Shown here: piece after piece, positions 11,194 to 64,000 of the stretch
Layout: each line of letters begins with the position of its first letter
Numbering within the stretch: the stretch's first letter is position 1
Made by a program: the position numbers and the translations under genes
NCBI RefSeq assembly: GCF_026210795.1
Contig: NC_089429.1
Coordinates: forward strand, 7,225,001 to 7,289,000
Reading direction: 5' to 3'
DNA length: 64,000 nt
Source of the DNA: Rhizophagus irregularis
Lineage: Eukaryota > Glomeromycota > Glomeromycetes > Glomerales > Glomeraceae
The notes under the pieces: model-generated
Told to the model about the DNA's origin: nothing
Databases searched by the model: none
The model's input: the letters and a program-made list of their open reading frames with translations, nothing else

Positions 11194-11815
11194 AGCATAG
11201 CGGACATCCCTATTTTATCACAATACTGTTGTCGATCATTTGCCGATCATTTATTCAATTATCACATAATATAAATACCGTTGCTAAAAAAATTTACATA
11301 ATAATATATGCTTAAATTTCACAAATAACTTAAATTTAGTTTTAATTTATTGTGTATTAAATTTCATTAGAAACTTTTTAGCTTTTATTATTATTTGGCA
11401 TATATTTATTCATTTTACGAAATTATTCACTAATTATGTTACTAATAAAAAACCTGCATTATGAATCAGATCACTGCATTATTTTTTTTATAGATTCTAC
11501 ATAATATAAAGAATATTTGTGCAAATTCTTAAGTTTCGCACTCGCATATTCATCTTCGCACTTTAATTTTTGTCTGATGATCGGCAATAATTAGTGAATT
11601 ATCATAAACAAATAATATATTTATAATATTATTAAAAATTGTGCTAATAATTATATAATTAAAATCATATAATAATTTAGTGTTTTTACTTAGATTCCAT
11701 TATTTTTTTGCCACATTATTTGAAAAATATTTGTGATTTTGCAATAAGTTTTTAAAATCCGGAATTAGTGATCAGCAAATGATCGGCAAGGTGATATGAG
11801 CATGTCCGCTATGCT
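11194..11815. mobile_element. non-autonomous derivative of the RING-transposase element
   Basis: A 622-bp element flanked by a perfect 9-bp TSD, GGGTAAGTG (11185-11193 and 11816-11824). TIRs start AGCATAGCGGACAT. The first 28 bases are identical to the left end of the 4.5-kb element at 56391-60938, and both ends carry subterminal GATCATTTGCCGATC words, as that element does. No coding frame inside, so it must be moved in trans. The 9-bp TSD would fit Mutator-like elements or some KDZ-type elements. Confidence 0.9.
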
Positions 11816-42208: not shown

Positions 42209-42422
42209 GGACCTCAAATAATACTAATATAACTCACAAATAAACTTTAAGTACCAAAGTAAAAATACATTTTATAATATAACTCTGTCATTATTGAAGC
42301 TTGACATTAGAATCCTTTCATCAAGACGAATTTAATAATATATATTTTATAAAATCGAATCACTAGTTATGTTAAAAATAAAGTATGTAAGATAACAAAA
42401 TTTTGAAAATACCTCTATAATA
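42209..42422 (+). mobile_element. MITE family B, truncated by hAT-A fragment
   Basis: Begins AGGACCTCAAATAATACTAA, the family TIR, followed by ACCAAAGTAAAAATACATTT (42254). It stops abruptly at 42422 where hAT-A coding sequence starts. Relatives at 16517 and 22903. Confidence 0.75.
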
Positions 42423-43510
42423 ATAGAAATAATTAAAATACTTGAAACTGATTCACAAAATATTAATAGAGAAGAAACAGGTGATGCATTTGATGAGGAG
42501 AATCAAGATGAAATACCAAATGATGATATTAATAAATCAGTTAATACTTATGGTTTAATTAATGAAATTAAATCAATTTTATATACAAATTTAATTAAGT
42601 ATTATCCTACAATTACTACTGATGCTTTAATTTCTTCAATACTTGATCCTAGATTTAAAAGTCTTGATTTTACTTCATCAATTCAAAAATCTCATACTGA
42701 GCAGCAGTTACGAACTCTATTTGAACAAGAAAAAAATAATCAAAAAAATACACCTGACGCATCTGGTACATCTGATGCATCCAGTACATCTGGCTCATCC
42801 AGCACATTCAAAAGAAAATCACTAATGGAACGACTTATTAAAGATAATGTAGTAGCTCTTGATGAAGTTGGGGAATATTTACAACTTAATGAAATTCCTT
42901 TTGCGTCAGATCCACTTGTATGGTGGAATGGAAAACAGGATAAATTTCCTATTTTACGTAACCTTGCACAAAAATATTTAGCAGTTTCTGCAACTTCAAC
43001 TGCGAGTGAACGTCTTTTTTCTGACGCCGGAAATTTATTAACAAATAAAAGAACACATATGAAACCAAGTTTATTCAAAAAAATCATGTTCTTAAAAAGA
43101 AATGCATCAAATTTTGATACAATTTATCCAACTGATGAATAGAAATTATATTCTATTGCAATATTACATTCATTGGATGTTTAAACTTAAATAAATAATA
43201 ATAATAGTAATAAAAATATTAAAATAATAAATGATTTAAACGATAAAAATTTTGCTAAGAAACCATTATTAACCTGTTAAACCCTTTAAGTAACCTGCTA
43301 TCCAACCGTTAAAACCCGTTAAGCAACCCGCTATTCACCCGTTAAAACCCTTTATCAAACCGTTAGCCAACCGTTAGTCAACCGTTATCAACCTGTTAAC
43401 CAACCGATAAAAAACTGGGTTAAACTTTCCTTAGCAGGTACCAACCCGGGTTTGTATTTCTCTTAACAGGTCAACCCGTGTACCCGTTAAGAACCTGGGT
43501 CTGAACACTA
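42423..43510 (+). mobile_element. hAT-A transposon, 3' fragment
   Basis: Nearly identical, in inverted orientation, to 61484-62586. An unbroken frame runs from 42423 to 43142 and encodes the C-terminal third of the hAT-A transposase, including the hAT dimerisation domain (YLQLNEIPFASDPLVWWNGK ... SATSTASERLFSDAGNLL). Only about four residues differ from the other copy. It is followed by the 3' subterminal region and the TIR, ending GTCTGAACACTA at 43510. The 5' part is missing, cut at 42422 inside MITE family B. Confidence 0.9.
43260..43500. repeat. hAT-A subterminal array of AACCCGTTA motifs
   Basis: About fifteen copies of ACC(C/T)GTTA-like heptamers and variants in one dominant orientation (for example AACCCGTTAAGCAACCCGCT and CAACCGTTAGTCAACCGTTA). 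The same array is present in the other hAT-A copy at 61510-61745. In hAT elements such subterminal motifs are commonly transposase binding sites (established for other family members; inferred here). Confidence 0.75.
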
Positions 43511-43544
43511 AAAATTGTGATAAAATAAAGATGTCCGCTATGCT
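43511..43544 (-). mobile_element. terminal stub of the RING-transposase element
   Basis: Read on the minus strand: AGCATAGCGGACATCTTTAT then TTTATCACAATTTT, matching the first ~34 bases of 56391-60938 with two or three changes. Directly abuts the hAT-A terminus, and AAAATTGT at the junction could be the hAT TSD, so hAT-A probably inserted into an older copy of this element. Confidence 0.75.
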
Positions 43545-43551
43545 ATTGGTA

Positions 43552-44745
43552 AAGCTCTGAATGGGTCAGTTTGGTCCGGATTATAGACGGTTCGGATTAG
43601 AGCTGAAATCCGTAAGAACCGAACCGAAAAACTGGCAGTTCGGTTCGGTTTAATCTGATTTTTATAAAAATGCGAAAAATCGAATAGCTAGCCATCTAGT
43701 GATCGTACAAAGTCGAGCCATATATCATTGGATTCGTCTCACTGAGACGCGTCGAATGGTGGTAAGATCATGTCTCTAGCATCGATAGATCACACGTTAA
43801 CTCACGCTAAATGATTTATAAATAATTGGAATTAGCAAGCTATCTATCGGTGCTAGAGGCATGATCTTAGCACCATTCGACGCGTCTCAGTGAGACGAAT
43901 CCAATGAATATAACTTCGTCCGTGTACGACCACTGGATGGCGAATAATATCAAGTTTCGCATTTTTTTAAAATTTTCGAGCATTAAAAATTAAAAATTCC
44001 GATACATGAATTTATTCGTCGTCCAATGGTCGTACAAATATGAATTAGGACTCATTGGATTCGTCTCGATGAGACTAGTCGAATGGTGGTAAGATCACGT
44101 CTCTAGCATCGATAGATAGCTTGCTAATGCCAATTTTTTATAAATTATTTAGCATGAATTAAAATACGATCTATTAATGCTAGAGACATGATCTCACCAC
44201 CATTCGACTCGTCTCATCGAGACGAATCTAATGAGTCCTAATTCATATTTGTACGACCATTGGACGACGAATAAATTCATGTATCGGAATTTTTAATTTT
44301 TAACGCTCAAAAATTTTAAAAAAATGCGAAACTTGATATTATTCGCCATCCAGTGGTCGTACACGAACGAATTTATATTCATTGGATTCGTCTCACTGAG
44401 ACGCGTCGAATGGTGCTAAGATCATGTCTCTAGCACCGATAGATAGCCTGCTAATTCCAATTATTTATAAATCATTTAGCGTGAGTTAACGTGTGATCTA
44501 TCGATGCTAGAGACATGATCTTACCACCATTCGACGCGTCTCGTCGAGACGAATCCAATGATATATGGTTGGACTTTGTACGATCACTAGATGGGCGGCT
44601 ATTCGATTTTTCGCATTTTATAAAAAATCGGATTAAACCGAACTGAACTGCCGGTTTTTTGGTTCTAATACCTGAACCGAACCGAACCGAATTTTGAGCC
44701 AGTTTCGGATCGGTTCCCCGGTTTAGCCCGAACTATTCGGAGCTT
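43552..44745. mobile_element. giant foldback element with nested palindromes
   Basis: The outer ends AAGCTCTGAAT and ATTCGGAGCTT are inverted and flanked by TA. The two ~590-bp halves are inverted copies of each other (for example 43639-43700 with GGCAGTTCGGTTCGGTTTAA against 44625-44660). Each half contains further inverted repeats based on CATTGGATTCGTCTCACTGA / GACGCGTCGAATGGTGGTAA and GATCATGTCTCTAGCATCGA; three such inner palindromes are centred near 43820, 44145 and 44475. GTCTCACTGAGAC is itself palindromic. It sits directly behind the hAT-B coding end. No coding capacity. Confidence 0.9.
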
Positions 44746-47162: not shown

Positions 47163-50100
47163 CTGGCAACTATACCAAAACACAACAACAGAAGAAGAAA
47201 ATGAAGAAAAAAGAGGCGTAGGTGAAGAAAATTTAAAAGAGAACGAAGAGGAAAACATCACAACAAATAAAACAAAAAAAGGAAAAACTTACATAAAACA
47301 AAAACAACAAGAAAATAATAAGAAAAAAGAAAAACATAACAAACTAAAAATAGGTTGTATAAACGTAAGGGGATGAACGATACAAAAAAACAAGGCGATA
47401 TAAGAAAATTTTTATCAAAAGAAAACTGGGATATAGCAATAATTAATGAAACTAAACTAAAAGAAGCAAAAGGTAAATATATATACAATGGCTGGGATAA
47501 ATATAAATGCATTAACAGTAGCTACAACAACGAAAACAACAAGAATGGAATAATAATAATGATAAGAAGAGATATCTACGATAGAGGATATAAGATAGAA
47601 ACAATCAACGGTCACGTGATTAAATTCGACTTATTATTCAAAGGAAATCAGAAAAACATAAGAATCATAGGAATATATAATCCAAATAACGACAAACCAA
47701 CTACGAATAACATAGAAAAACATTTGGCAAAATGGATGAACGAAGCAATAAACCTAGAATATGAAACGATAATTTTGGGAGATTTCAATGAATCAGCCAA
47801 TAACAAGAAAAAATTAAAACCGTTAACAAACACAATCAAGAATCATGGCTTACAAGACATTCACGAAAGTTTAACAGTAGCGGAAGATAGACTAGACACT
47901 TGGAAGAGTGGAGACAATTCATCCAGGATAGATTTTATTTTCGCAAGCGAAGGCTTTCAAGAAAGTATTATAAGTCATGAGATACTAGAAATAGAAGACT
48001 TCGACACAGATCACAAAGCACTAACAGTTAAAATAGAAATTAAAGAAAAATTAGGAATAAACAAACCCGGATTTATGAAAGAAATAAAAAAGGAAATAAG
48101 ACACATAAAATTAGAACAAGAAGATTGGAAAGAAATAGCAGAAGAAGTAGAAACAAGATTAGAAACGTTAGACCAGAATACAACACAACATTTAAATCGA
48201 GAAATGATATGGAAAACGATAGTAGATATATACGACGAAGAAAAAAATAGACAACTAATTAAAATCAGAAAAAGAAAAGAAGATTCAAAAAAAGAAAGAG
48301 ACGAAAGTTTAATGAAAACAAACGAAGAAAGATTAGAGGAATTAATCACAGAATACGAAAACTTAGAAAAAATTGATACGATAGAACATGGAATCAGTAA
48401 GATAACAGATAAAGTTATAAAGAAATTATGGCAAGATAGAAAAGCCTTTCAATACAAATATAATTTCAAAGAATTCGAAGAAACAATAATAATAGAGCAA
48501 TGGGGAACAACGGACACAGGTAAACACAACGCGGTAAAACTAGGAAAATTAATCAACATACATGATAGACTCGAAAAAAACATTGAATACGGAATCACGA
48601 TAGATAAACTAAGAAAATATAGAAACCGCAAAGAGTTAAAAGAAAGAAGAACAAAAAGAGCAGAAATTATGAGAAGCCTATATGTGGAAATTAATAGCCT
48701 GAACATAGAAATAAACATAAGAAAACGCGAAACGTACCTAGAAGAAGACATAGGAAAAATGTTAAATAGAATTTTAGAAAAAAAGAGAGAGAAAATTAAT
48801 ATGACAGGATTAGTAATAAAAGAGAATGGAAGAATCACGATAGAAAAAGACAAAAAAAAGATAAAGGATAAAGTATTAAAACATAACAAAGATTGGACAA
48901 AGAAAAGAGAAATAGACCTAGATGAACTAGAATATGATCCGGAGTGGAGAGAGATCTATACACCTAATGAAGATATAAACGAAAATATTTACAAAAATCT
49001 AATGACACCGATAAGGATGGAAGAACTAGAAAGGGTATTACAAAACCTAAAAACAAATAAAGCACCAGGATCAAGTGGTATAACTTACGACTTTTGGAAG
49101 AAAAGCGGAAACCTAACGAGGAATTTATTATTAAACATCTTTAACGACAGCATGGCCAAAGAGAACGTAACGGATGAATGGAAAAAAGGATTTATATATC
49201 CGATAAATAAAACTTCACGTTCAAATTGGAATCAAGATTTAAACTTGACGAGACCGATAGTGCTCTTAGAAACGGCAAGAAAAATTTGGTTTAAAATATT
49301 GGTAAATAGATTAGGCGAAATTTTAACAAAAGAACAGATTTTGACAAATACGAATTTTGCAGCACTAAAAAACGAAAGCACCCTAGAGCCAATAAAAATC
49401 ATCCAAGCAATAATAGAAGACGCTAATAATTACAAAAAAGAAGCATGGATACTATTGATGGATATATCCAAAGCTTACGATTCAGTAAACACAACAATGC
49501 TAAAAAGAAGCCTGGAAAGAATTAAACTGCCACCAAATTTTATTAACATAGTTATGGACGTCAATTTAAATAGATTTAATAGGGTGCTAGTAAACAACGA
49601 ACTTACAGATGAATACCATGTAGAAGACGGTATCGACCAAGGCGAAGTATGGTCACCGATACTGTGGAGAATTTTTTATGACCCGCTTTTAAGTAGATTA
49701 AATGAAATGAAAGAGGAGACAGGTTACAACTTTTACGAGGAAAAATTAATCGATAATAATAAAAAAGATAAAGAAATACTTGAAATATCGATTAACGTTA
49801 CGGCATTTATGGACGATACAACGCTTATCAGCAAAAATAAAAAACAATTAGAAAAAATGATTGAGATATGTCATCAATTTTTTAATATAAATGACATAAA
49901 AGCAAACGTATCGAAATATGAACTTATAAAAATAAATAATGATAAAGAAGAACTTTTAATTAAAGGAGAATCAATCACAAAAACAAATAGTGAAGAAGGT
50001 AATCGTTACTTAGGAATATTTTTTAGATACGACAACAAAAGAGAAATATATAAAAAGAAAATAACATCAATAATCAATAACGCCTGCAATATATTTAATT

Positions 50101-52848
50101 GGAAAAGATTAAACGAAAAACAAATCATAGCGGTTTGGAATATAGTTATTATACCAAGGATAGAGTATCAGCTGGCAGCCATAGTCCTAAAGAAATGGGA
50201 ATGTGAGAAATTGATGACAAGAATAAATATGATAATCAAAAAAAGAGCTGGCCTAGCAAGATCAACTCCAAATTTTATAATTTATGATAAAGACATTTTA
50301 GGTATAAAACATATTTACGACTTACAGATGGAAATGATATGTAAGAATTTGCTTTATCAGGCGAATGGAAATTACAAATTACAAATTTTATTTAAAATCA
50401 AAATGATCCAAGAACAGAAAAATATATGGACTTCGAGATGTCCCGGAGAAATAGAAATAACAAATTACAGGAAAAATAATTGGATCATATCAGCTCTAAA
50501 GGCGTTAAATAACGAAAAAAATTAAAATATGTAATCATGAAATAAAAGATTTTAGAGAAAGCCATAGAATCAAAGGAGGAAAGACTGACCTAATTGATTT
50601 AATGGAGTGTAAGGATTTTATAACAAGTACTCAATCAAGAAAAACAAAAAAAATAATGTTTTTAGAAGACATCCTAGAGGCGGACGGTATCACTTTACTA
50701 AAATGGAAGCATTTATGTAAAGAAAGAGGAAAGAACACGAAAGGAAAATCGCCTAAATGGTTTAAAAAATTAGAATTGAAACTAATAGCAGACGAAAGTG
50801 GACAAGTAAGAAAAATAAGAAACGAGTTTATAGGACAAGCACAAAAAGAAAATATTCACATAAACTATTTTGATGAAGATGAAAAATCGGACAAAAATAG
50901 TATTGTAACTTGGAACGACTACGGAGAATACCCGATATTTAGTATTAATAAAAAAAAATCGCAGAGTAAGAAATACAAAAGAATAGGAATACATTTAGAA
51001 CTAGACGGAGATAGTTATGATCTAAACAATTCGCCTCAACTGAAGAAATGTCAAGGATGTTTTAGAAACATTAGTAAAAAAAAGGGGAGCAACGAATGTC
51101 TAATATACATAGAAAACGAAATCTGTAGAAATTTAGATAGAAGAAAAGAAGAAGACTATATTAAACCGTACGAAACTCTAAATAATATTATAAAAAAGAA
51201 TGAATGGTTACGAACGTATACAAAAGAAGATAAAAAAGATGAGTCATTTAACAAAAAAATAGAATTAATCGACAAAATAATTAACACGAATGACAAAAAT
51301 TTTCTGGATATAATCAAAAACAGTATTTTCGAAGAAGAAGATAATTTGATTTCGATTACAAAACGAAGATTTTGTTTACTAATTAATACAAACAAAAAGA
51401 AATGGGAAATTAACAATAAAGGTAAAAGAGTTTATCGATATAATGTAGTATGGAAAATATTTGAACTGAATTACGAAGGAAAAGAGAGCGAGGAAGTGAT
51501 CCTACTAGCGAGCTATGAATGTAATTACGAAAACGAATTCAAAATTATTCTTAGATGTATAATTCTAGGAATTATGATAATAAGTGAGAATAGCGAATTA
51601 ATTTTAGGAATAAACGAGAAAGTCAATAGACTAATAATTGAATTTACTAATAATTTTAGTAATAGGAAGAAAATAGATAGTGATTACTATTTAGAGCTTT
51701 TATTTTTAGAAAACTTTTTAGAAACAAATAATATTGAATTAATCGAAGGTAAAGAGAAAATACAGAGAATCATAAAAGAAAAAAGAAAAGAGATGCAGGA
51801 AATGTTAAAGAACAATAAGATAGTAGATAAGATAAAATATAATTTTGAATTAATAGACGAAGGTTTAATTACGAATGAATATAATTTAATTTGGAATAAC
51901 AAATTAATAACAGGAGGATTCCGAGTTTGGAGGAAAGCAGTGACATTAGCAATTTGGAAAAATGAAATTTTAAACAGCGAGAGGTTAGAAGATCTATTTA
52001 TGTACAATTATAGAAACGAATTTGACTGGATCGCAAGTCTTGAATTTATTAGTAATAGAGTTAAATTTTCGCAAAGACAATGTGGTGATAGAGACACAAT
52101 TGAACGCTCATACAGAATCAAAAATTTACTTAAAGAATTGCCCACATATAACACTTTATTTAAAAAAAACACGAACAAAATTGATACAGATAAATGTATA
52201 AGATGTGGGAAAATCTTCACAGAAGATTGGGAACACATATGGATATGTGAAGATAACGATATATCAATTGATGAAATCATACGAGAATCACCATATAATT
52301 TCGAAAAAGTTTTGGATAACTCTAACCAAACCGAAGAACTAGATATCTTAAGAAACTACAATTGTGAATTTATTAATATAATAGAAAGTCCTTCAAATAT
52401 TTTGTTGGGGAAAAGCAGAAAATGGGAATTACTAAGAGGGATTTATAATAATAAATTCAATGATTTATCTAAAGAGAAAAAAATTAAAGATCTAATCAAA
52501 AAGCTTTGGATGTTCACGTATGACGAGATTAAGAAACGAATATGGATACCACGATGCGAAGAAATTAAAAGATTAGAAGAAAGAGAACAAATTAAAAAAA
52601 TAGATCTTAGAAGGAGAAGAGCCGCAAACGATGATATAGTAGAAGATGAAATCGACAAGGATATATTACCAGGAAAAATGAAAAAACAAAAAACAAAAGA
52701 AAATTTAGTTAAAAAAGAAAAAAATACAAATATAAATAGACAAATTAGCTTAGTAACGTTAGACAAATTGAAAGGATTAATCACAGAAGGTATTAATATA
52801 GCTAAATCTTGGAATTCAACAATTAAATTAACGAACGCTCTAGTTTAG
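47131..52848 (+). CDS. LINE ORF2: APE endonuclease, reverse transcriptase, C-terminal zinc finger
   Basis: First plausible ATG at 47131, overlapping the ORF1 stop by about 30 nt. LKIGCINVRG (47343-47374) opens the endonuclease; a one-base deletion there moves the frame to the long part starting at 47355. APE motifs: INETKL (about 47444), ILGDFN (47773), SSRIDFIF (47920), DTDHKAL (48003). RT motifs: NKAPGSSGITY (49055), LLMDISKAYDSV (49452), GIDQGEVWSPILW (49630), and TAFMDDTT (49798) with FMDD instead of the usual xADD. An extra A in the run at 50514-50520 shifts the frame again. The rest (50602-52848) contains a weak RNase-H-like region without clear catalytic residues and a CIRCGKIFTEDWEHIWIC finger (52196-52250). 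Confidence 0.85.
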
Positions 52849-56381: not shown

Positions 56382-56799
56382 TAAGTGCATAGCATAGCGG
56401 ACATCCCTATTTTATCACAATTTTGCCGATCATTTGCCGATCATTTGTTGATCACTATTTTATCATATCACATTTAATATTAGATTTTTTTTAAAGTTAA
56501 TCTCAGTTATCTCAGCATCCAGTGATCAGAATTTTATGATTTTTAGCTTGTTAGAAAACTTAGAACTTGATGAATCCGATCATCTTTATTTTACAAAATT
56601 TGGAGTTATATATCTTGAGATATTTGCATTCGGAATCTTCTAATTATTTTATTATATAATTTATCTTATTAGTTGGAGTAATTATACAATTATAATTCAT
56701 TAATTTTCATTAATCAAAATAAAATATTAATTTTTATTATTAAAAAATTTCAATAAAGTGACTTTTGCAATTTAATAAAAATTATTATATTAATACTAA

Positions 56800-59700
56800 T
56801 TATATATCATTATAATTTAACCATTGTTGATACATTATATCATATTGATTTTCTACATCACATTCTGTTCTTTCTAATATGTTTTCAATATTCTCTTCTT
56901 CATCATTTTCATCATCATTATTATTTTCCTTTTCAAATAAAGGGATTTCATTTTCTTTTAATGATGTCGACAATCTTTGATCCAAACTCTTAATATTTTT
57001 CTCAATTCCGGATGATAAATAATCAAAACAAAAATTACATTTATCATCATATAAAGTACTTAAACATTCTTTATGAAAACTGTGTCCACAAAGTAAAACA
57101 ATTCCATTAGATAAATCTATACTATTTGATAATAAACAATTATTTGCATCACAAAATTTATCATCTGCTGGTATTTTTTGTGTATTCCAGCCTAAAGGAA
57201 GTACCTTTACATCCACTTCAATATCAAAACTTGGAAGATAAAATTTTGGATATCTATCATTATTAATTTGTTTTGTATTTCCTATATTCTGATGAATCTT
57301 ATCAAATATTGAGAATAAAAATAATGAAACCTTTTTTTCTAAAGATTTTAATTCTTTAATTTGAGACTTAGCTGGATTTCTCAAATTAACAAAAGAATTT
57401 TTAAAAGGATTATTATTTCTTTCAGCATCAATAATTTTTGCTTTTTGTATAATTTGTAACTCTGAATTTGATTCTGCTGTTTGATGCCTTAAAGAGCTAT
57501 GAAAATTTTCAACAAAATAATCATTAAAAATTGGTAAATTATTTTTTAAAATATTAATTATTGGATGATTTTTTGAAGTCCAATAAAATACATCACTTAA
57601 AAACATAAGTGGTGCTTTATTATAATTATGTCTTCTCAATCTTTGAAATAATATCCAAATTTTTACAGTACTTTCTAAATATCCTTCAAAAAATCCACTT
57701 CTAAAAAGTATTGCATATATATCCAAAGTAAGTGGAATAGAATTATCTAATAAATCTATCATCATTTGATATTCTGCATCTTTTAAATTTCCAAATCTTT
57801 TTGTAACAATATCACGAATATTTTTCCATCCATGATAAGTTAAATGTAAAATAAGATTGATTACTGTTTGTTTTGGTTTTTGAGATAATATTTTTTTATC
57901 TCCAAATAAGTTATGATATAGCATCTCAAAAAAGAAATGATATGTTTGAAATAGTATTTCTCTGCTGTTTAAAGAGACATGAAGTGGACCTATCATAGGA
58001 ATTAAATTTAACACTTGCTCTGGAACTCCAGAATTAATGCCTTTCTTAATTCTAAGTGTTATAGCTCTTCTTATATTTACTTGTCCTGGCCAATCAGCAA
58101 TTACAGGAATGATAAAATTATTTAAATAATTTTCTTCAATATTTTCTAATCTTTCAAATGCTTTAAATACATAATCTAAACATTCAATATAATCCTTAGT
58201 ACTATGTAAAGGATGCAAAATAAAGTCTACTAATTTGCTATTAGACATTGATCTTAATTCATGGTAATTTTGAATTCTACCATCATAATTATGAATATTA
58301 AGTAGTTCAACTCTATTTTCATAAGAATCTTCAATTAAAAAATTTTTCCATAATTCTTTTTGCATATAATAACTTTTACCTAATTGATTCATAAAATTAT
58401 TTTTAATGTTATTAATAATTAATCCAGAATCAATTCCTTTAGGATTATGTATTGAAAAATTATTTAATGAATAAAATGGTATTTTTGGAATTTTAGTATT
58501 TGTATTCAATAATATTGTTACAAAATGATAAATATTGTGAGTTTGTAACAATGTTGGTTGATTACGCCTATGAATATTATGGTAATCATCTATATTAAGA
58601 ATAAACATATTTTCTATATTTTGTAAACAATAATTATCTACAGTTTGTTGGTGTTCATTTGAAATAAAATTTTTTTTACGATTTACTGTTTTTCTTGTTA
58701 CTGAAACTCCTATATTTGCCAATGTATCAATAGAAGAAGAAGAAGCTCCAGAAGTTTCCAAGTATGATCCAATATCAACTTTAATTCCATTAATATATTT
58801 ATTATTAATGCTAGCTAAAAAATAACATAAAGAAACTAATTTTTTTTTGTTGTTATTATTTGTTGTTTCAGATTTAGTATTAGGATTAGTTCCAGCATAT
58901 AATTCATCAAAAAATCCAATTAAATCTTTATCAGCTGTTTCTAACATAGTTTTAAAAGCTATTGGATCATAAATAGGTTTAAGATTTAATCTATGTTGAT
59001 TATTATAAAGAATATTAGACATTTTTATTATTTTACTACTTAATTTAATTTCACTTGAAATTTTTAATTGTGTCATAATTTCTTGATAATCTGATTCAAA
59101 TTGTTGTAATTCTTCTCCAGTATATAAGATATCTTTTCTAAATAAATAAGTATGATTTCCTATTTTTGATATATTGTCATTATTATTTTTTCTAGAAATT
59201 GGTGCTTTATATTCTTCAGTTTGTAAATATTGAGAATCTTTATCAGTTTTTTTTTTACACATACTGCAAATCATTGCAAGTTCATCTAATTCTAATACTT
59301 TAATTAATCTTGTTGGAACTTTTTGAAGACTAAATTGTTTGCTTGTATTTTTTGATTGATTTAAGTATTCATCATGTTTTGGATGTTGACAAGTTTTTAT
59401 TTGTTTAGTTTCTATTGATTCATTTTGTATAACTTCTATTGATTCATTTTGTATAACTTCTATTGATTCATCTTGTATAGCCTCTATTAGTTCATCTTGT
59501 ATAGTTTCTATTGATTCATCTTGTAAATTATCATTATCATTTAAATTGTTTTTTTTAATTGGAATAGGTGCTTTGTATTTTTCATTTTGTAAATATTCAG
59601 AATCTTTATCAGTTTTATTTCTACACATACTACAAATTTCTGAAGATTCATTTAATTCTAAAACTTCAATTAATCTTTTTGGAACCTTTTTAAGATTAAG

Positions 59701-59963
59701 TTTGCTTGATTTTTTTTTGTATTTTTTGATTGATTTTTATATTCATCATGTTTTGGATGCTCACAACTCTTATTATAATTAATATTTCTAGTTTCATTTA
59801 AAATAAATTGATTGTAATGTATTTGGCATAAATACATTCCAACTGAAATAATTAATTCAGTAGATTTTGGTATTTTAGTGTTATAAGTGATTGGCTTTAT
59901 TCTTCCATTACATTCAATGGAATCAAAATTGCAAATATTTGAAAAAGTAGAAGTGTTATCCAT
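56800..59963 (-). CDS. transposase-like protein with N-terminal Cys/His modules and C-terminal RING-H2 finger
   Basis: About 1,055 codons from ATG 59963 to 56800, in two frames that join if the 9-bp T run near 59708-59716 is one base longer; so as given it is frameshifted. N terminus: two tandem copies of a module CxHPKHDEY...ICSMCxxKTDKDS (about 59760-59585 and 59390-59235), linked by a five-fold 8-residue repeat of the type DESIExIQ. Core: LNIDDYHNIH (58590), VIADWPGQVNIRRA (58105-58060), MIGPLHVSLNSRE (58000-57960), ENFHSSLRHQTAESN (57510-57470). These Asp/His positions are candidates for a DDE/D-type active site, by analogy with other fungal transposases (inference). C terminus: RING-H2, C-x4-C-x15-C-x-H-x2-H-x2-C-x8-C-x2-C (57160-57025), then an acidic tail. 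It is the only gene in a TIR/TSD-bounded element, so most likely its transposase. I do not know a named superfamily that fits with certainty. Confidence 0.8.
59411..59524 (-). repeat. 24-bp in-frame minisatellite in the RING-transposase gene
   Basis: Five units of TCTATTGATTCATTTTGTAT then AACT (plus strand), each coding eight residues of the form (D/N)ESIExIQ. Unit length is a multiple of three, so copy number can change without breaking the frame. Confidence 0.85.
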
Positions 59964-60202
59964 TTTTTATATTAAAAATTATGAAAGTATTTAAAAAAAT
60001 ATTGTTTTTTTATTTTAAATTGGATTGGATTTTCTAATTTTGCTAAAGCAATTTTTTTGTCTATTTATAAAAAAACTGATTAAATATAACACATAGAAAA
60101 CTTTTAAAATAATTAATTTTATCTTATATTTTTAAAATAGTAAACAAAAATAAATTTTAGAAAATATATAAAGTTTTAAAATCAAATAATCATATATTAC
60201 TT

Positions 60203-60548
60203 AAAATTGACTAAATATAACATATAAGTAAGTTTTGGTTTCAAGCGAATTAGAATGCCATTTTTTTACCATATATTTCTAAATGGTTAACAAATATATA
60301 ATGAAAATTTCAAAGTTGGCTTAAAAGTCTGTGGCTTTGTACAAAACTTTGAAGTCTAAAAATTGCAAATTTATTAAAATTGACTAAATATAGTATATAG
60401 GTAACTTTTGGTTTCAAGCGAATTAGGATGCCATTTTTTCACCATATATTTCTAAATGGTTAACAAATATATGATGAAAATTTCAGAGTTGGCTTAAAAG
60501 TCTGTGGCTTTGTACAAAGTTTTAAAGTCTAAAAATAGTAAATTTCCT
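60203..60548. repeat. 173-bp tandem duplication upstream of the RING-transposase gene
   Basis: Two adjacent copies about 173 bp apart share TTTTGGTTTCAAGCGAATTA, CCATATATTTCTAAATGGTT and GGCTTAAAAGTCTGTGGCTT. A weaker partial third copy begins near 60078. They lie between the gene start (59963) and the element end (60938), so they may be promoter or transposase-binding repeats. Confidence 0.85.
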
Positions 60549-60947
60549 AATTAAATACTAAAAATTTATATATAAAATTAATAAATATCAATTTTAGTAA
60601 TGAAAAAGGTTTATTATTTTATTCTATATCGTTAAAAAACTTAAATTTATCAATTTTTATAGCCCGGCCGAATGTATATCGGTGTAGCCAAGCCAGATCG
60701 GCCGATTTTATATAATGTGATAATTCATAATAGAAATACAAAATCGTGAATATCTTGGCATCTAGTGATCCAAAATTAATGAAAATACCACCATTTGACT
60801 CGTCTCGATGAGGCGAATCCAATGAGCACAACTTTATCAAAATTGGATGACTGAATTTCGAGATATTGTTTATTGAAGTTTGAAAAATATATACGATCAG
60901 CAAAATGATCGGCATGGCGATATAACATGCTCATGCGTTAAGTGCAT

Positions 60948-61483: not shown

Positions 61484-64000
61484 TAGTGTTCAGACCCAGG
61501 TTCTTAACGGGTACACGGGTTGACCTGTTAAGAGAAATAAAAACCCGGGTTGGTACCTCGCTAAGGAAAGTTTAACCCTTTGCTTTTATCGGTTCGGTTA
61601 ACGAGGTTGATAACCGGTCGACTAACGGTTGGCTAACTAGGTTTGACAAAGCTTTTACCTAATTTATGAATAGTGGGTTGCTTAACGGGTTTTAATGGTT
61701 GGATAGCGGGTTACTTAAAGGGTTTAACAGGTTAATAATGGTTTCTTAGCAAAATTTTTATCGTTTAAATCATTTATTATTTTAATATTTTTATTACTAT
61801 TATTATTATTTATTTAAGTTTAAACATCCAATGAATGTAATATTGCAATAGAATATAATTTCTATTCATCAGTTGGATAAATTGTATCAAAATTTGATGC
61901 ATTTCTTTTTAAGAACATGATTTTTTTGAATAAACTTGGTTTCATACGTGTTCTTTTATTTGTTAATAAATTTCTGGCATCAGAAAAAAGACGTTCACTC
62001 GCAGTTGAAGTTGCAGAAACTGCTAAATATTTTTGTGCAAGGTTACGTAAAATAGGAAATTTATCCTGTTTTCCATTCCACCATACAAGTGGATCTGACG
62101 CAAAAGGAATTTCATTAAGTTGTAAATATTCCCCAACTTCATCAAGAGCTATTACATTATCTTTAATAAGTCGTTCCATTAGTGATTTTCTTTTGAATGT
62201 GCTGGATGAGCCAGATGTACTGGATGCATCAGATGTACCAGATGCTTCAGGTGTATTTTTTTGATTATTTTTTTCTTGTTCAAATAGAGTTCGTAACTGC
62301 TGCTCAGTATGAGATTTTTGAATTGATGAAGTAAAATCAAGACTTTTAAATCTAGGATCAAGTATTGAAGAAATTAAAGCATCAGTAGTAATTGTAGGAT
62401 AATACTTAATTAAATTTGTATATAAAATTGATTTAATTTCATTAATTAAACCATAAGTATTAACTGATTTATTAATATCATCATTTGGTATTTCATCTTG
62501 ATTCTCCTCATCAAATGCATCACCTGTTTCTTCTCTATTAATATTTTGTGAATCAGTTTCAAGTATTTTAATTATTTCTATTATTAATCGTGAATGTAAA
62601 CTGCTTGTCACATATTTACTTCCTCCTAATTCCGTTGTTGCATCTGCAAATGTTGATAATACCTCTATTATATCAGCAAGAAAATCCCATTCCTCATCTG
62701 TAATCATTATTTGCTTTAATCTTTTAGCTTCTTTTTTTGTATCTAAATCTGTACTAATTGAAAGAGTATTAGATAAAAGCTTAATCCATTCTTTCAAATA
62801 TATTAAACGTGACCAGGCAAGATAACTTGAATTCCAACGAGTGGCCACGTCATTAACTAATCGAAGATATTTGGCTGTATCTTTGGCACTCTAAAAAAAT
62901 TAAAATTTAATATTATAATTATATATAAGAATTTATAAATTATTATTAAAACTTACAATTTGTTCATTAGATTCTAAATTTTCATCTTTATTTGCATTTG
63001 GATATTTTTTTTGAATATCTTCTAGGCGTTCAGATTGTTTGGGACGCATAAAAAAATCAATTAATCTTTTCACTCGTAAAATTAATGGTTTTGCTGGGAT
63101 TAGCCCTTTTCCAATTATTAGTTGTAAAGTGTGTGCCCCACATGCTTGCCATTTAATTGAATTCATATCCGAAATGGCTTTTTTCATATTGGCAGCATTA
63201 TCAGTGGTGATTACAAAGACTTTTTCTCGTAATTTCCATTCCTCTAATGTTTCTTCTAAACTTTCTGCAATATGCTGTACAATGGAGATAACGAATACGA
63301 TTAACTGTTAAGGTAATTTCATTAAGTACAAAATTGGAATCAATATAGGTGCAAGTTACTCCAATATAACCTTGCCCATTTTTCACGATCCACATATCTG
63401 TGGTTAATGATACACTCTTTGCTTCCACCCTAATTTTTTCAATTAATATTGGCAATGTGGATTTATAGGATTTCGAAATAATTCTCTTAATTCCTTTTTC
63501 ATCTGGAATTATAAAAGCTGGATCTAATTCATTAATCAATTTACGAAATGAAAGACTTTGTACTACGTATAATGGTTGAAGATCTTCAGTTATCCAGTTG
63601 GTCAAAAATTGGCGAAGTTTACGTTGCCGACTTTCTTTATGCTTATAAGTATGAACAATAGATGTAATTGTTGACTGATTTTTCTATATTATAATAAGAT
63701 TATTAATTAGTTTTAACAGCACATAATCCACATATAATAAAAGATTAAGAAAAATACCAACATTCTTCATTCTATCATCATTTGTTATATCATGTTCCGA
63801 TGATAAATGATTAATCACGTTACCGGTTGAACCATCATTAACATGAATAGCTTCACATTTTTTTCCATCTGCACTTAAAACTTTACACCTCTTAAGTGGT
63901 TCTCCTTTATCACTTGTTTGTTCATTAATATCTACTTCTTCAAAATATTCCCACGTCCAACTTGATTTTTTTCGACTACTTTTTGCTTTCTTTGATTGCG
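61484..64000 (-). mobile_element. hAT-A transposon, longer copy running off the window
   Basis: Starts TAGTGTTCAGACCCAGGTTC at 61484, the same TIR as the fragment ending at 43510. Then come the subterminal AACCCGTTA array (61510-61745, inverted) and the transposase gene on the minus strand. The other TIR is outside the window. Confidence 0.9.
61862..64000 (-). CDS. hAT-A transposase, BED finger type, partial at the window edge
   Basis: Exons on the minus strand. Exon a, 64000-63758: SSWTWEYFEEVD then C-x9-C and NHLSSEH, a BED zinc finger. Intron 63757-63684 (GTATTT...ATATAG, 74 bp). Exon b, 63683-62957: QRKLRQFLTNWITEDLQPLY, VSLTTDMWIVKNGQGYIGVT, then a one-base frameshift near 63285 (RIRYLH to QHIAESLEETLEEW), VFVITTDNAANMKKA, QACGAHTLQLIIGKGL. 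Intron 62956-62891 (GTAAGT...TTTTAG, 66 bp). Exon c, 62890-61862: VATRWNSSYLAWSRL and the C-terminal hAT dimerisation domain. Catalytic Asp of TTDMW and TTDN and the downstream family motifs are visible. Cut-and-paste transposase making 8-bp TSDs. Except for the one shift it looks intact; the start codon lies outside the window. Confidence 0.88.

What the first reader, a model, noticed from the sequence alone, without database searches (positions are those of the whole stretch)
56391..60938. A TIR/TSD-bounded transposon whose only gene is a RING-finger transposase-like protein
The sequence shows a perfect 9-bp TSD (TAAGTGCAT), matching subterminal repeats at both ends and one ~1,055-codon gene. 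The protein combines duplicated Cys/His modules, a core with DDYHNIH, ADWPGQ and GPLHVSL motifs, and a C-terminal RING-H2 finger. RING fingers are usually E3 ubiquitin ligase domains; fused to a transposase it could ubiquitinate host factors or itself, or simply bind DNA or protein. I cannot place the core in a named superfamily with certainty; the 9-bp TSD fits Mutator-like or KDZ-type elements.
Basis: partly seen in the sequence, partly recalled or inferred. Interest (0 to 1): 0.88.

Follow-up and report, generated by a model that had tools for sequence, protein, structure and literature searches.

The report
Mycorrhizal fungus transposon with RING-tailed transposase
This is a young-looking cut-and-paste jumping gene of an arbuscular mycorrhizal fungus whose transposase matched no named transposase family and carries a conserved RING zinc finger at its tail, an arrangement otherwise known mainly from Chapaev transposons and the immune recombinase RAG1.

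Summary
Window 56391-60938 is one copy of a DNA transposon in a 146.7-Mb genome that looks like Rhizophagus irregularis. There are 14 other near-full-length copies (98.6-99.8% by BLAST); 12 of 14 have their own perfect 9-bp target-site duplications, and one of two joined-flank searches found uninterrupted paralogous sites. The family's ends are AGCATAGCGGACAT(C/G)C. The window copy has an altered right end and a frameshifted gene; intact copies exist. Sister subfamilies and 0.6-1.2-kb MITEs (one in the window, 11194-11815) share ends and 9-bp TSDs. Two AlphaFold2 models give an RNase-H core (D383/384, D548, E743) with an all-alpha insertion; best solved-structure matches are P element, Hermes and ISCth4 (IS256), then Transib/RAG1. 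No Pfam transposase model (KDZ, Plavaka, MULE, hAT, P) matched 53 diverse members. The C-terminal RING-H2 ligands are as conserved as the catalytic residues among proteins that reach that far, but recalled hallmarks of E2 binding are missing, so E3 activity is doubtful. Best reading: an unplaced, superfamily-level lineage of DDE transposons, P/hAT/Mutator-like in fold, with an ancestral RING; seen so far only in Glomeromycotina and unnamed metagenome contigs.

The parts
56382..56390 (.). left target-site duplication TAAGTGCAT
   Evidence: the same 9-bp rule in 12 of 14 other copies
56391..56406 (+). left terminal inverted repeat AGCATAGCGGACATCC
   Evidence: identical in 13 of 14 other copies, one base off in L019
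56425..56442 (+). subterminal GCCGATC motif, two copies
   Evidence: element positions 35 and 46
56800..59963 (-). transposase gene; in this copy in two overlapping frames (broken within 59670-59736); intact 1055-codon frames exist in other copies
59817..59933 (-). N-terminal Cys/His module, here C-x6-C-x27-C-x2-H (38 other family proteins: C-x2-4-C-x34-39-C-x2-C/H)
   Evidence: sequence; for the family pattern
59545..59766 (-). CxHPxH...CxxC module, first copy
   Evidence: 81% over 223 columns to the second copy
59401..59525 (-). 24-bp coding repeats between the two modules
   Evidence: family D1
59179..59392 (-). CxHPxH...CxxC module, second copy
57427..58611 (-). RNase-H-like DDE core with all-alpha insertion
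   Evidence: AlphaFold2 models and structure matches
58570..58590 (-). DDYHNIH, first catalytic Asp (D383 or D384)
   Evidence: D383 149 of 153, D384 147 of 152 aligned residues
58081..58098 (-). ADWPGQ, second catalytic Asp (D548)
   Evidence: 146 of 147
57979..57990 (-). GPLH, in the place of the C/DxxH motif (my inference)
   Evidence: H586 143 of 145; [quoted passage not shown]
57508..57510 (-). catalytic Glu (E743) in VENFHS
   Evidence: 131 of 134; in helix 740-752 after the insertion
57028..57153 (-). C-terminal RING-H2 finger
   Evidence: all 38 PDB sequences matched by the family profile at E<=10 match in this part; each ligand kept in 119-126 of 121-130
60167..60512 (.). 173-bp tandem duplication in the right subterminal region (upstream of the gene)
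   Evidence: family D2
60696..60702 (+). subterminal GATCGGC motif
60907..60913 (+). subterminal GATCGGC motif next to the right end
60920..60938 (+). right terminus, altered in this copy
60939..60947 (.). right target-site duplication TAAGTGCAT
11194..11815 (+). 622-bp MITE of the same family with 9-bp TSD GGGTAAGTG

Best explanation
The element is a recently active class II (cut-and-paste) transposon. Its single protein is a DDE transposase: N-terminal Cys/His modules (inferred to read the terminal and subterminal GCCGATC repeats), a helical region, an RNase-H core with D383/384, D548 and E743 interrupted by an all-alpha insertion, and a C-terminal RING-H2. A multimer pairs the two ends, cuts at AGCATA and joins the element to target DNA with a 9-bp stagger (the stagger is shown by TSDs and by paralogous empty sites for one copy; end binding, pairing and cleavage are inferred). 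Short MITEs with the same ends are mobilised in trans (inferred). The lineage could not be placed in a named superfamily; in fold it sits with P element, hAT and IS256/Mutator. The RING is an ancestral, retained part of the transposase; I think it more likely serves as a structural or protein/DNA-contact cross-brace finger than as a working E3 ligase.
Confidence: 0.8

Rival explanations
1. The RING is an active E3 ubiquitin ligase that ubiquitinates the transposase itself or host factors, as the RAG1 RING does, and so controls transposase level or target-site chromatin.
For: Proper RING-H2 spacing; the family profile is closest to E3 RINGs RNF38, AMFR, RNF165, Arkadia; precedent in RAG1, whose RING finger has ubiquitin ligase activity (PMC4411706, passages).
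Against: Of 123 RINGs with the full pattern none has Pro after Cys7, one has Trp in the loop before Cys7, none has Arg or Lys directly after Cys8, and the residue before Cys2 is mostly polar. Pfam RING matches of the window frame and L010 stay below gathering scores; Vps8 RING models match 20 of 27 and 19 of 53 members, and one relative, P0102, has a precomputed Vps41 RING assignment. The hallmark list is recalled, and some E3s lack hallmarks.
Confidence: 0.27
2. The element is a very diverged P-superfamily transposon: THAP-like finger at the N-terminus, P-like core, TSD drifted from 8 to 9 bp.
For: P element is the best or joint best structural match; N-terminal C-x2-4-C-x34-39-C-x2-C/H with a predicted strand-helix-strand order in P0104.
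Against: No Pfam THAP or P-element model matched (five N-termini, 53 members); hhalign of the N-terminal profile to the P-element THAP sequence gives probability 4%; the fourth ligand is Cys in 24 of 38; TSD 9 bp.
Confidence: 0.2
3. The element is a diverged Mutator/IS256-type element, as the 9-bp TSD suggested to the first reader.
For: 9-bp TSD; ISCth4 (IS256) is among the best matches; MULEs make 8-11 bp TSDs and a few carry RING or PHD fingers (PMC6446971, passages).
Against: PF10551 does not match; hhalign against three MULE proteins of this genome gives probability about 1% (a weak test); P and Hermes have higher Z than ISCth4 on both models.
Confidence: 0.15
4. It is a host gene family or dead repeat mistaken for a transposon.
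For: The window copy is frameshifted with an altered right end.
Against: Independent TSDs, empty sites, nearly identical copies, intact frames, MITEs.
Confidence: 0.01

Closest known systems
Drosophila P element transposase (6pe2, 6p5a)
   Different: No sequence-profile match; TSD 9 bp, not 8 (8 recalled); no C-terminal RING in P (recalled); THAP identity not supported
hAT (Hermes)
   Different: No match to the hAT dimerisation domain PF05699; hAT TSDs usually 8 bp, 5-7 also known (PMC12730594, passages)
Mutator/MULE and IS256 (ISCth4)
   Different: No MULE profile match; RING is an integral C-terminal part here
Chapaev and RAG1 (Transib/CMC group)
   Different: Their RING stands beside the N-terminal Chapa zinc finger (PMC4411706, passages); TSDs of 3-5 bp (recalled); lower structural score
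piggyBac and PiggyMac C-terminal cross-brace zinc finger
   Same: C-terminal cross-brace finger on a transposase; binds DNA in piggyBac and histone H3 in PiggyMac (PMC8086355, passages)
   Different: Different transposase group and different ligand order
KDZ (Kyakuja-Dileera-Zisupton)
   Same: Fungal TIR elements with long TSDs
   Different: KDZ model does not match; Zisupton TSD 8 bp (PMC12730594, passages)

Membership tests
DDE cut-and-paste DNA transposon | Terminal inverted repeats with fixed-length TSDs in independent copies | tested here: met
   12 of 14 near-full-length copies plus the window copy; 7 of 7 fetched MITE-sized elements, picked because one search listed both their ends, plus one in the window
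DDE cut-and-paste DNA transposon | RNase-H fold with acids in strand 1, after strand 4 and in the late helix | tested here: met
   secondary structure; conservation; structure matches; active-site distances could not be measured
DDE cut-and-paste DNA transposon | Catalysis or mobility observed | not testable with these tools
   -
P superfamily | 8-bp TSD (recalled) | tested here: not met
   9 bp
P superfamily | THAP DNA-binding domain | tested here: inconclusive
   ligand spacing fits, but no Pfam hit and hhalign probability 4% against one THAP sequence
P superfamily | P-type core fold | tested here: inconclusive
   highest Z on one model, tied with Hermes on the other
hAT | hAT dimerisation domain PF05699 | tested here: not met
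   not among matches of 53 members at E<=0.05, while two hAT ORFs of the window match at 3e-17
hAT | 8-bp TSD (5-7 also known) | tested here: not met
   9 bp
Mutator/MULE | 8-11 bp TSD | tested here: met
   9 bp
Mutator/MULE | MULE transposase domain PF10551 | tested here: not met
   (150 of 407 candidates scored)
KDZ | KDZ domain PF18758 | tested here: not met
CMC/Plavaka/Chapaev | Plavaka PF18759 or Transposase_21 match | tested here: not met
   one weak DUF4218 match in one of 53 members, E 0.04
CMC/Plavaka/Chapaev | 2-4 bp TSD | tested here: not met
   9 bp; Plavaka 2-3 bp, the rest recalled
RING-H2 domain | Eight ligands C-C-C-H-H-C-C-C with cross-brace spacing | tested here: met
RING E3 ligase | E2-contact residues (hydrophobic before Cys2, Trp before Cys7, Pro after Cys7, basic residue after Cys8; recalled) | tested here: not met
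RING E3 ligase | Ubiquitin transfer | not testable with these tools

The most novel reading that the evidence does not exclude
A superfamily of eukaryotic DDE transposons that I did not find described, seen so far only in Glomeromycotina, in which an ancestral RING makes the transposase a ubiquitin ligase that tunes its own stability or host chromatin: a second, independent invention of the RAG1/Chapaev RING-transposase arrangement.
Probability: 0.2. Interest if true: 0.85.

Novelty: new variant of a known kind. Interest (0 to 1): 0.62.

Why it matters
Published surveys of Rhizophagus irregularis left about 30% of the genome as unclassified repeats (PMC11075540 and PMC8647823, passages). A 2024 curation raised classified TEs from 12% to 36% of one strain and may already hold this family under some label, which I could not check. 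The family's proteins are named hypothetical or RING-type domain-containing in the databases, so transposases may be counted as host genes. Kapitonov and Koonin wrote in 2015 that a RING is not encoded in known transposable elements outside the Chapaev/RAG1 group (a later survey notes isolated RINGs in MULEs). Here it is ancestral to a structurally different lineage, so the role of a RING in transposition becomes testable outside the V(D)J recombinase.

Tried and rejected
Foldseek against viral models gave nothing usable. tblastn against phage records: no match. THAP identity of the N-terminal finger: no Pfam hit, hhalign 4%. HMM-HMM against three local MULE proteins: about 1%, but three sequences make a weak profile. 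KDZ, Plavaka and MULE scans of the genome: no overlap with element copies by eye; only 150 of 407 MULE candidates and 123 of 180 Plavaka candidates were scored. Empty site for L044: only its own two halves. Label test on the tree: presence of the RING pattern is not clustered (13 changes, as low in 500 of 500 shuffles), which I read as scattered loss or poor gene models. Wider host range: three protein searches listed 120 of 152, 150 and 278 proteins; every row whose shown name includes an organism is Glomeromycotina (Rhizophagus, Diversispora, Ambispora, Acaulospora, Gigaspora) except one 'Bacteroidetes' MAG contig of 4.3 kb that I take for contamination; metagenome rows have no organism, and only about 8000 word-sharing candidates were scored per search, so absence elsewhere is not shown. 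This family was not found described in ten searches of an open-licence library, of which I saw listings and, for nine papers, passages only; Repbase itself could not be searched.

Full report
Setting. The window is contig C1:7225001-7289000 of a 146.7-Mb, 32-contig genome. Proteins of the family are recorded from Rhizophagus irregularis (OCT59 records) on contigs whose lengths equal those of several contigs here (5,894,816 = C4, 5,296,510 = C8, 3,440,831 = C28; others, such as C3, differ slightly), and the size is close to the 146,773,001 bp given by Manley et al. 2023 (PMC10234402, passages). I infer R. irregularis.

The element. A DNA search with 56391-60938 gave 64 matches, among them 14 other near-full-length copies at 98.6-99.8% by BLAST; one, L023, is about 160 bases shorter and came as two pieces. 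Alignment of the other 13 with the window copy gives 99.2-99.8% to the window copy and 99.3-99.9% to L010, gaps not counted. The ends are AGCATAGCGGACATCC on one side and AGCATAGCGGACATGC on the other; 12 of 14 copies are flanked by their own 9-bp TSD, the exceptions being L012 and L022. The window copy keeps a perfect TSD but its right end is altered. The end pattern is found 150 times forward and 144 reverse against 1 and 0 for the backward control; the first 100 places were listed.

Relatives. Diverged subfamilies with ends AGCATAGCGAACAT and AACAGGGCGGACAT have 9-bp TSDs in L026, L027, L028, L037, L038, L039, L040 and L041; in L024 only one end was found, and L025 is the place of L039 cut short. 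Seven of seven fetched short elements (620-1203 bp; L042-L048, picked because one search listed both ends near each other) and the 622-bp one in the window have TIRs and 9-bp TSDs. The window MITE shares 59 columns of the left and 48 of the right end with the full element at 93-94%. Of eight places of the distant P0104 type (L029-L036) two have perfect 14-base TIRs AGCATAGGGAAAGT with 9-bp TSDs, four have imperfect AG(C/T)AT-type ends with a 9-bp match, two gave none (the imperfect ones come from a best-of search and are weaker; L035 spans 6.5 kb and may be compound).

Empty sites. I joined flanks of 20 copies and searched two. Those of L023 match uninterrupted sequence at two nearby places on the same contig over all 120 bases at 96% and 95%. 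Those of L044 found only their own two halves.

The protein. The window copy has two overlapping frames; L010, L011 and L012 have one frame of 1055 codons. On 53 diverse members at E<=0.05, 21 Pfam families matched: RING models (up to 19 members each) and single-member hits without a pattern, no transposase model (earlier scans). The family profile matches 38 PDB sequences at E<=10, all through its RING part, best RNF38 at E 0.0043.

Conservation. In an alignment of 158 proteins D383 is kept in 149 of 153, D384 in 147 of 152, D548 in 146 of 147, H586 in 143 of 145, E743 in 131 of 134; the eight RING ligands in 124/126, 126/130, 121/124, 124/124, 121/123, 122/122, 122/122 and 119/121, with 28-37 of the 158 having a gap there. 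Of 204 proteins 123 have the full RING pattern in the C-terminal half; 24 longer than 700 residues do not. In a core tree of 50 representatives 37 have it, at least three in each of the six long-stemmed clades; of the 13 without it, eight end before the RING region and five (P0096, P0100, P0153, P0170, P0177) show remains of it. I conclude that the RING is ancestral to the family. dN/dS between three subfamily genes is 0.37-0.45 overall; for the RING alone 0.77, 0.27 and 0.27.

What the RING does. Among the 123, none has Pro after Cys7, one has Trp before Cys7, none has Arg or Lys right after Cys8. By recalled E3 hallmarks this argues against canonical E2 use. C-terminal cross-brace fingers of piggyBac-type transposases bind DNA or histone H3 (PMC8086355, passages), which is the model I prefer, with E3 activity at about 0.27.

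Literature. Kapitonov and Koonin 2015 wrote that RING and Chapa domains are not encoded in known transposable elements other than the Chapaev/RAG1 group (PMC4411706, passages); a later MULE survey lists a RING in a separate frame of one Ghost element, a C3HC4 RING in one Phytophthora element and a PHD finger with 9-bp TSDs in Rehavkus (PMC6446971, passages). R. irregularis repeat studies classify by known profiles. I found no description of this family in ten searches of an open-licence library.

Verdict. A real, young-looking transposon family with a DDE transposase of a lineage I could not place in a named superfamily, with an ancestral C-terminal RING. Confidence: transposon and DDE core about 0.95; lineage distinct at superfamily level about 0.65; RING fold about 0.93; RING as E3 about 0.27.

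Noticed in passing
window 11194-11815: A 622-bp MITE of the same family with TSD GGGTAAGTG; 99.8% identical to L042 elsewhere in the genome.
   Followed up: yes
window 43511-43544: A lone 34-bp left end of the family in reverse orientation (94%), perhaps a truncated relic; about 40-bp stretches of the element's right subterminal region recur several times at 43725-44561.
   Followed up: partly
window 61865-62890 (-) and 42396-43139 (+): Two ORFs with hAT C-terminal dimerisation domains (E 3.3e-17 and 3.9e-17), one close to the element.
   Followed up: no
window 47340-50522 (+): LINE-type ORF with endonuclease and reverse transcriptase domains.
   Followed up: no
L035 (C23:406500-416000): Two P0104-type transposase matches between AGCATG-type ends 6.5 kb apart with a 9-bp match outside: a possible compound or tandem element.
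   Followed up: no
window 60167-60512: A 173-bp tandem duplication in the right subterminal, non-coding region, upstream of the gene.
   Followed up: no
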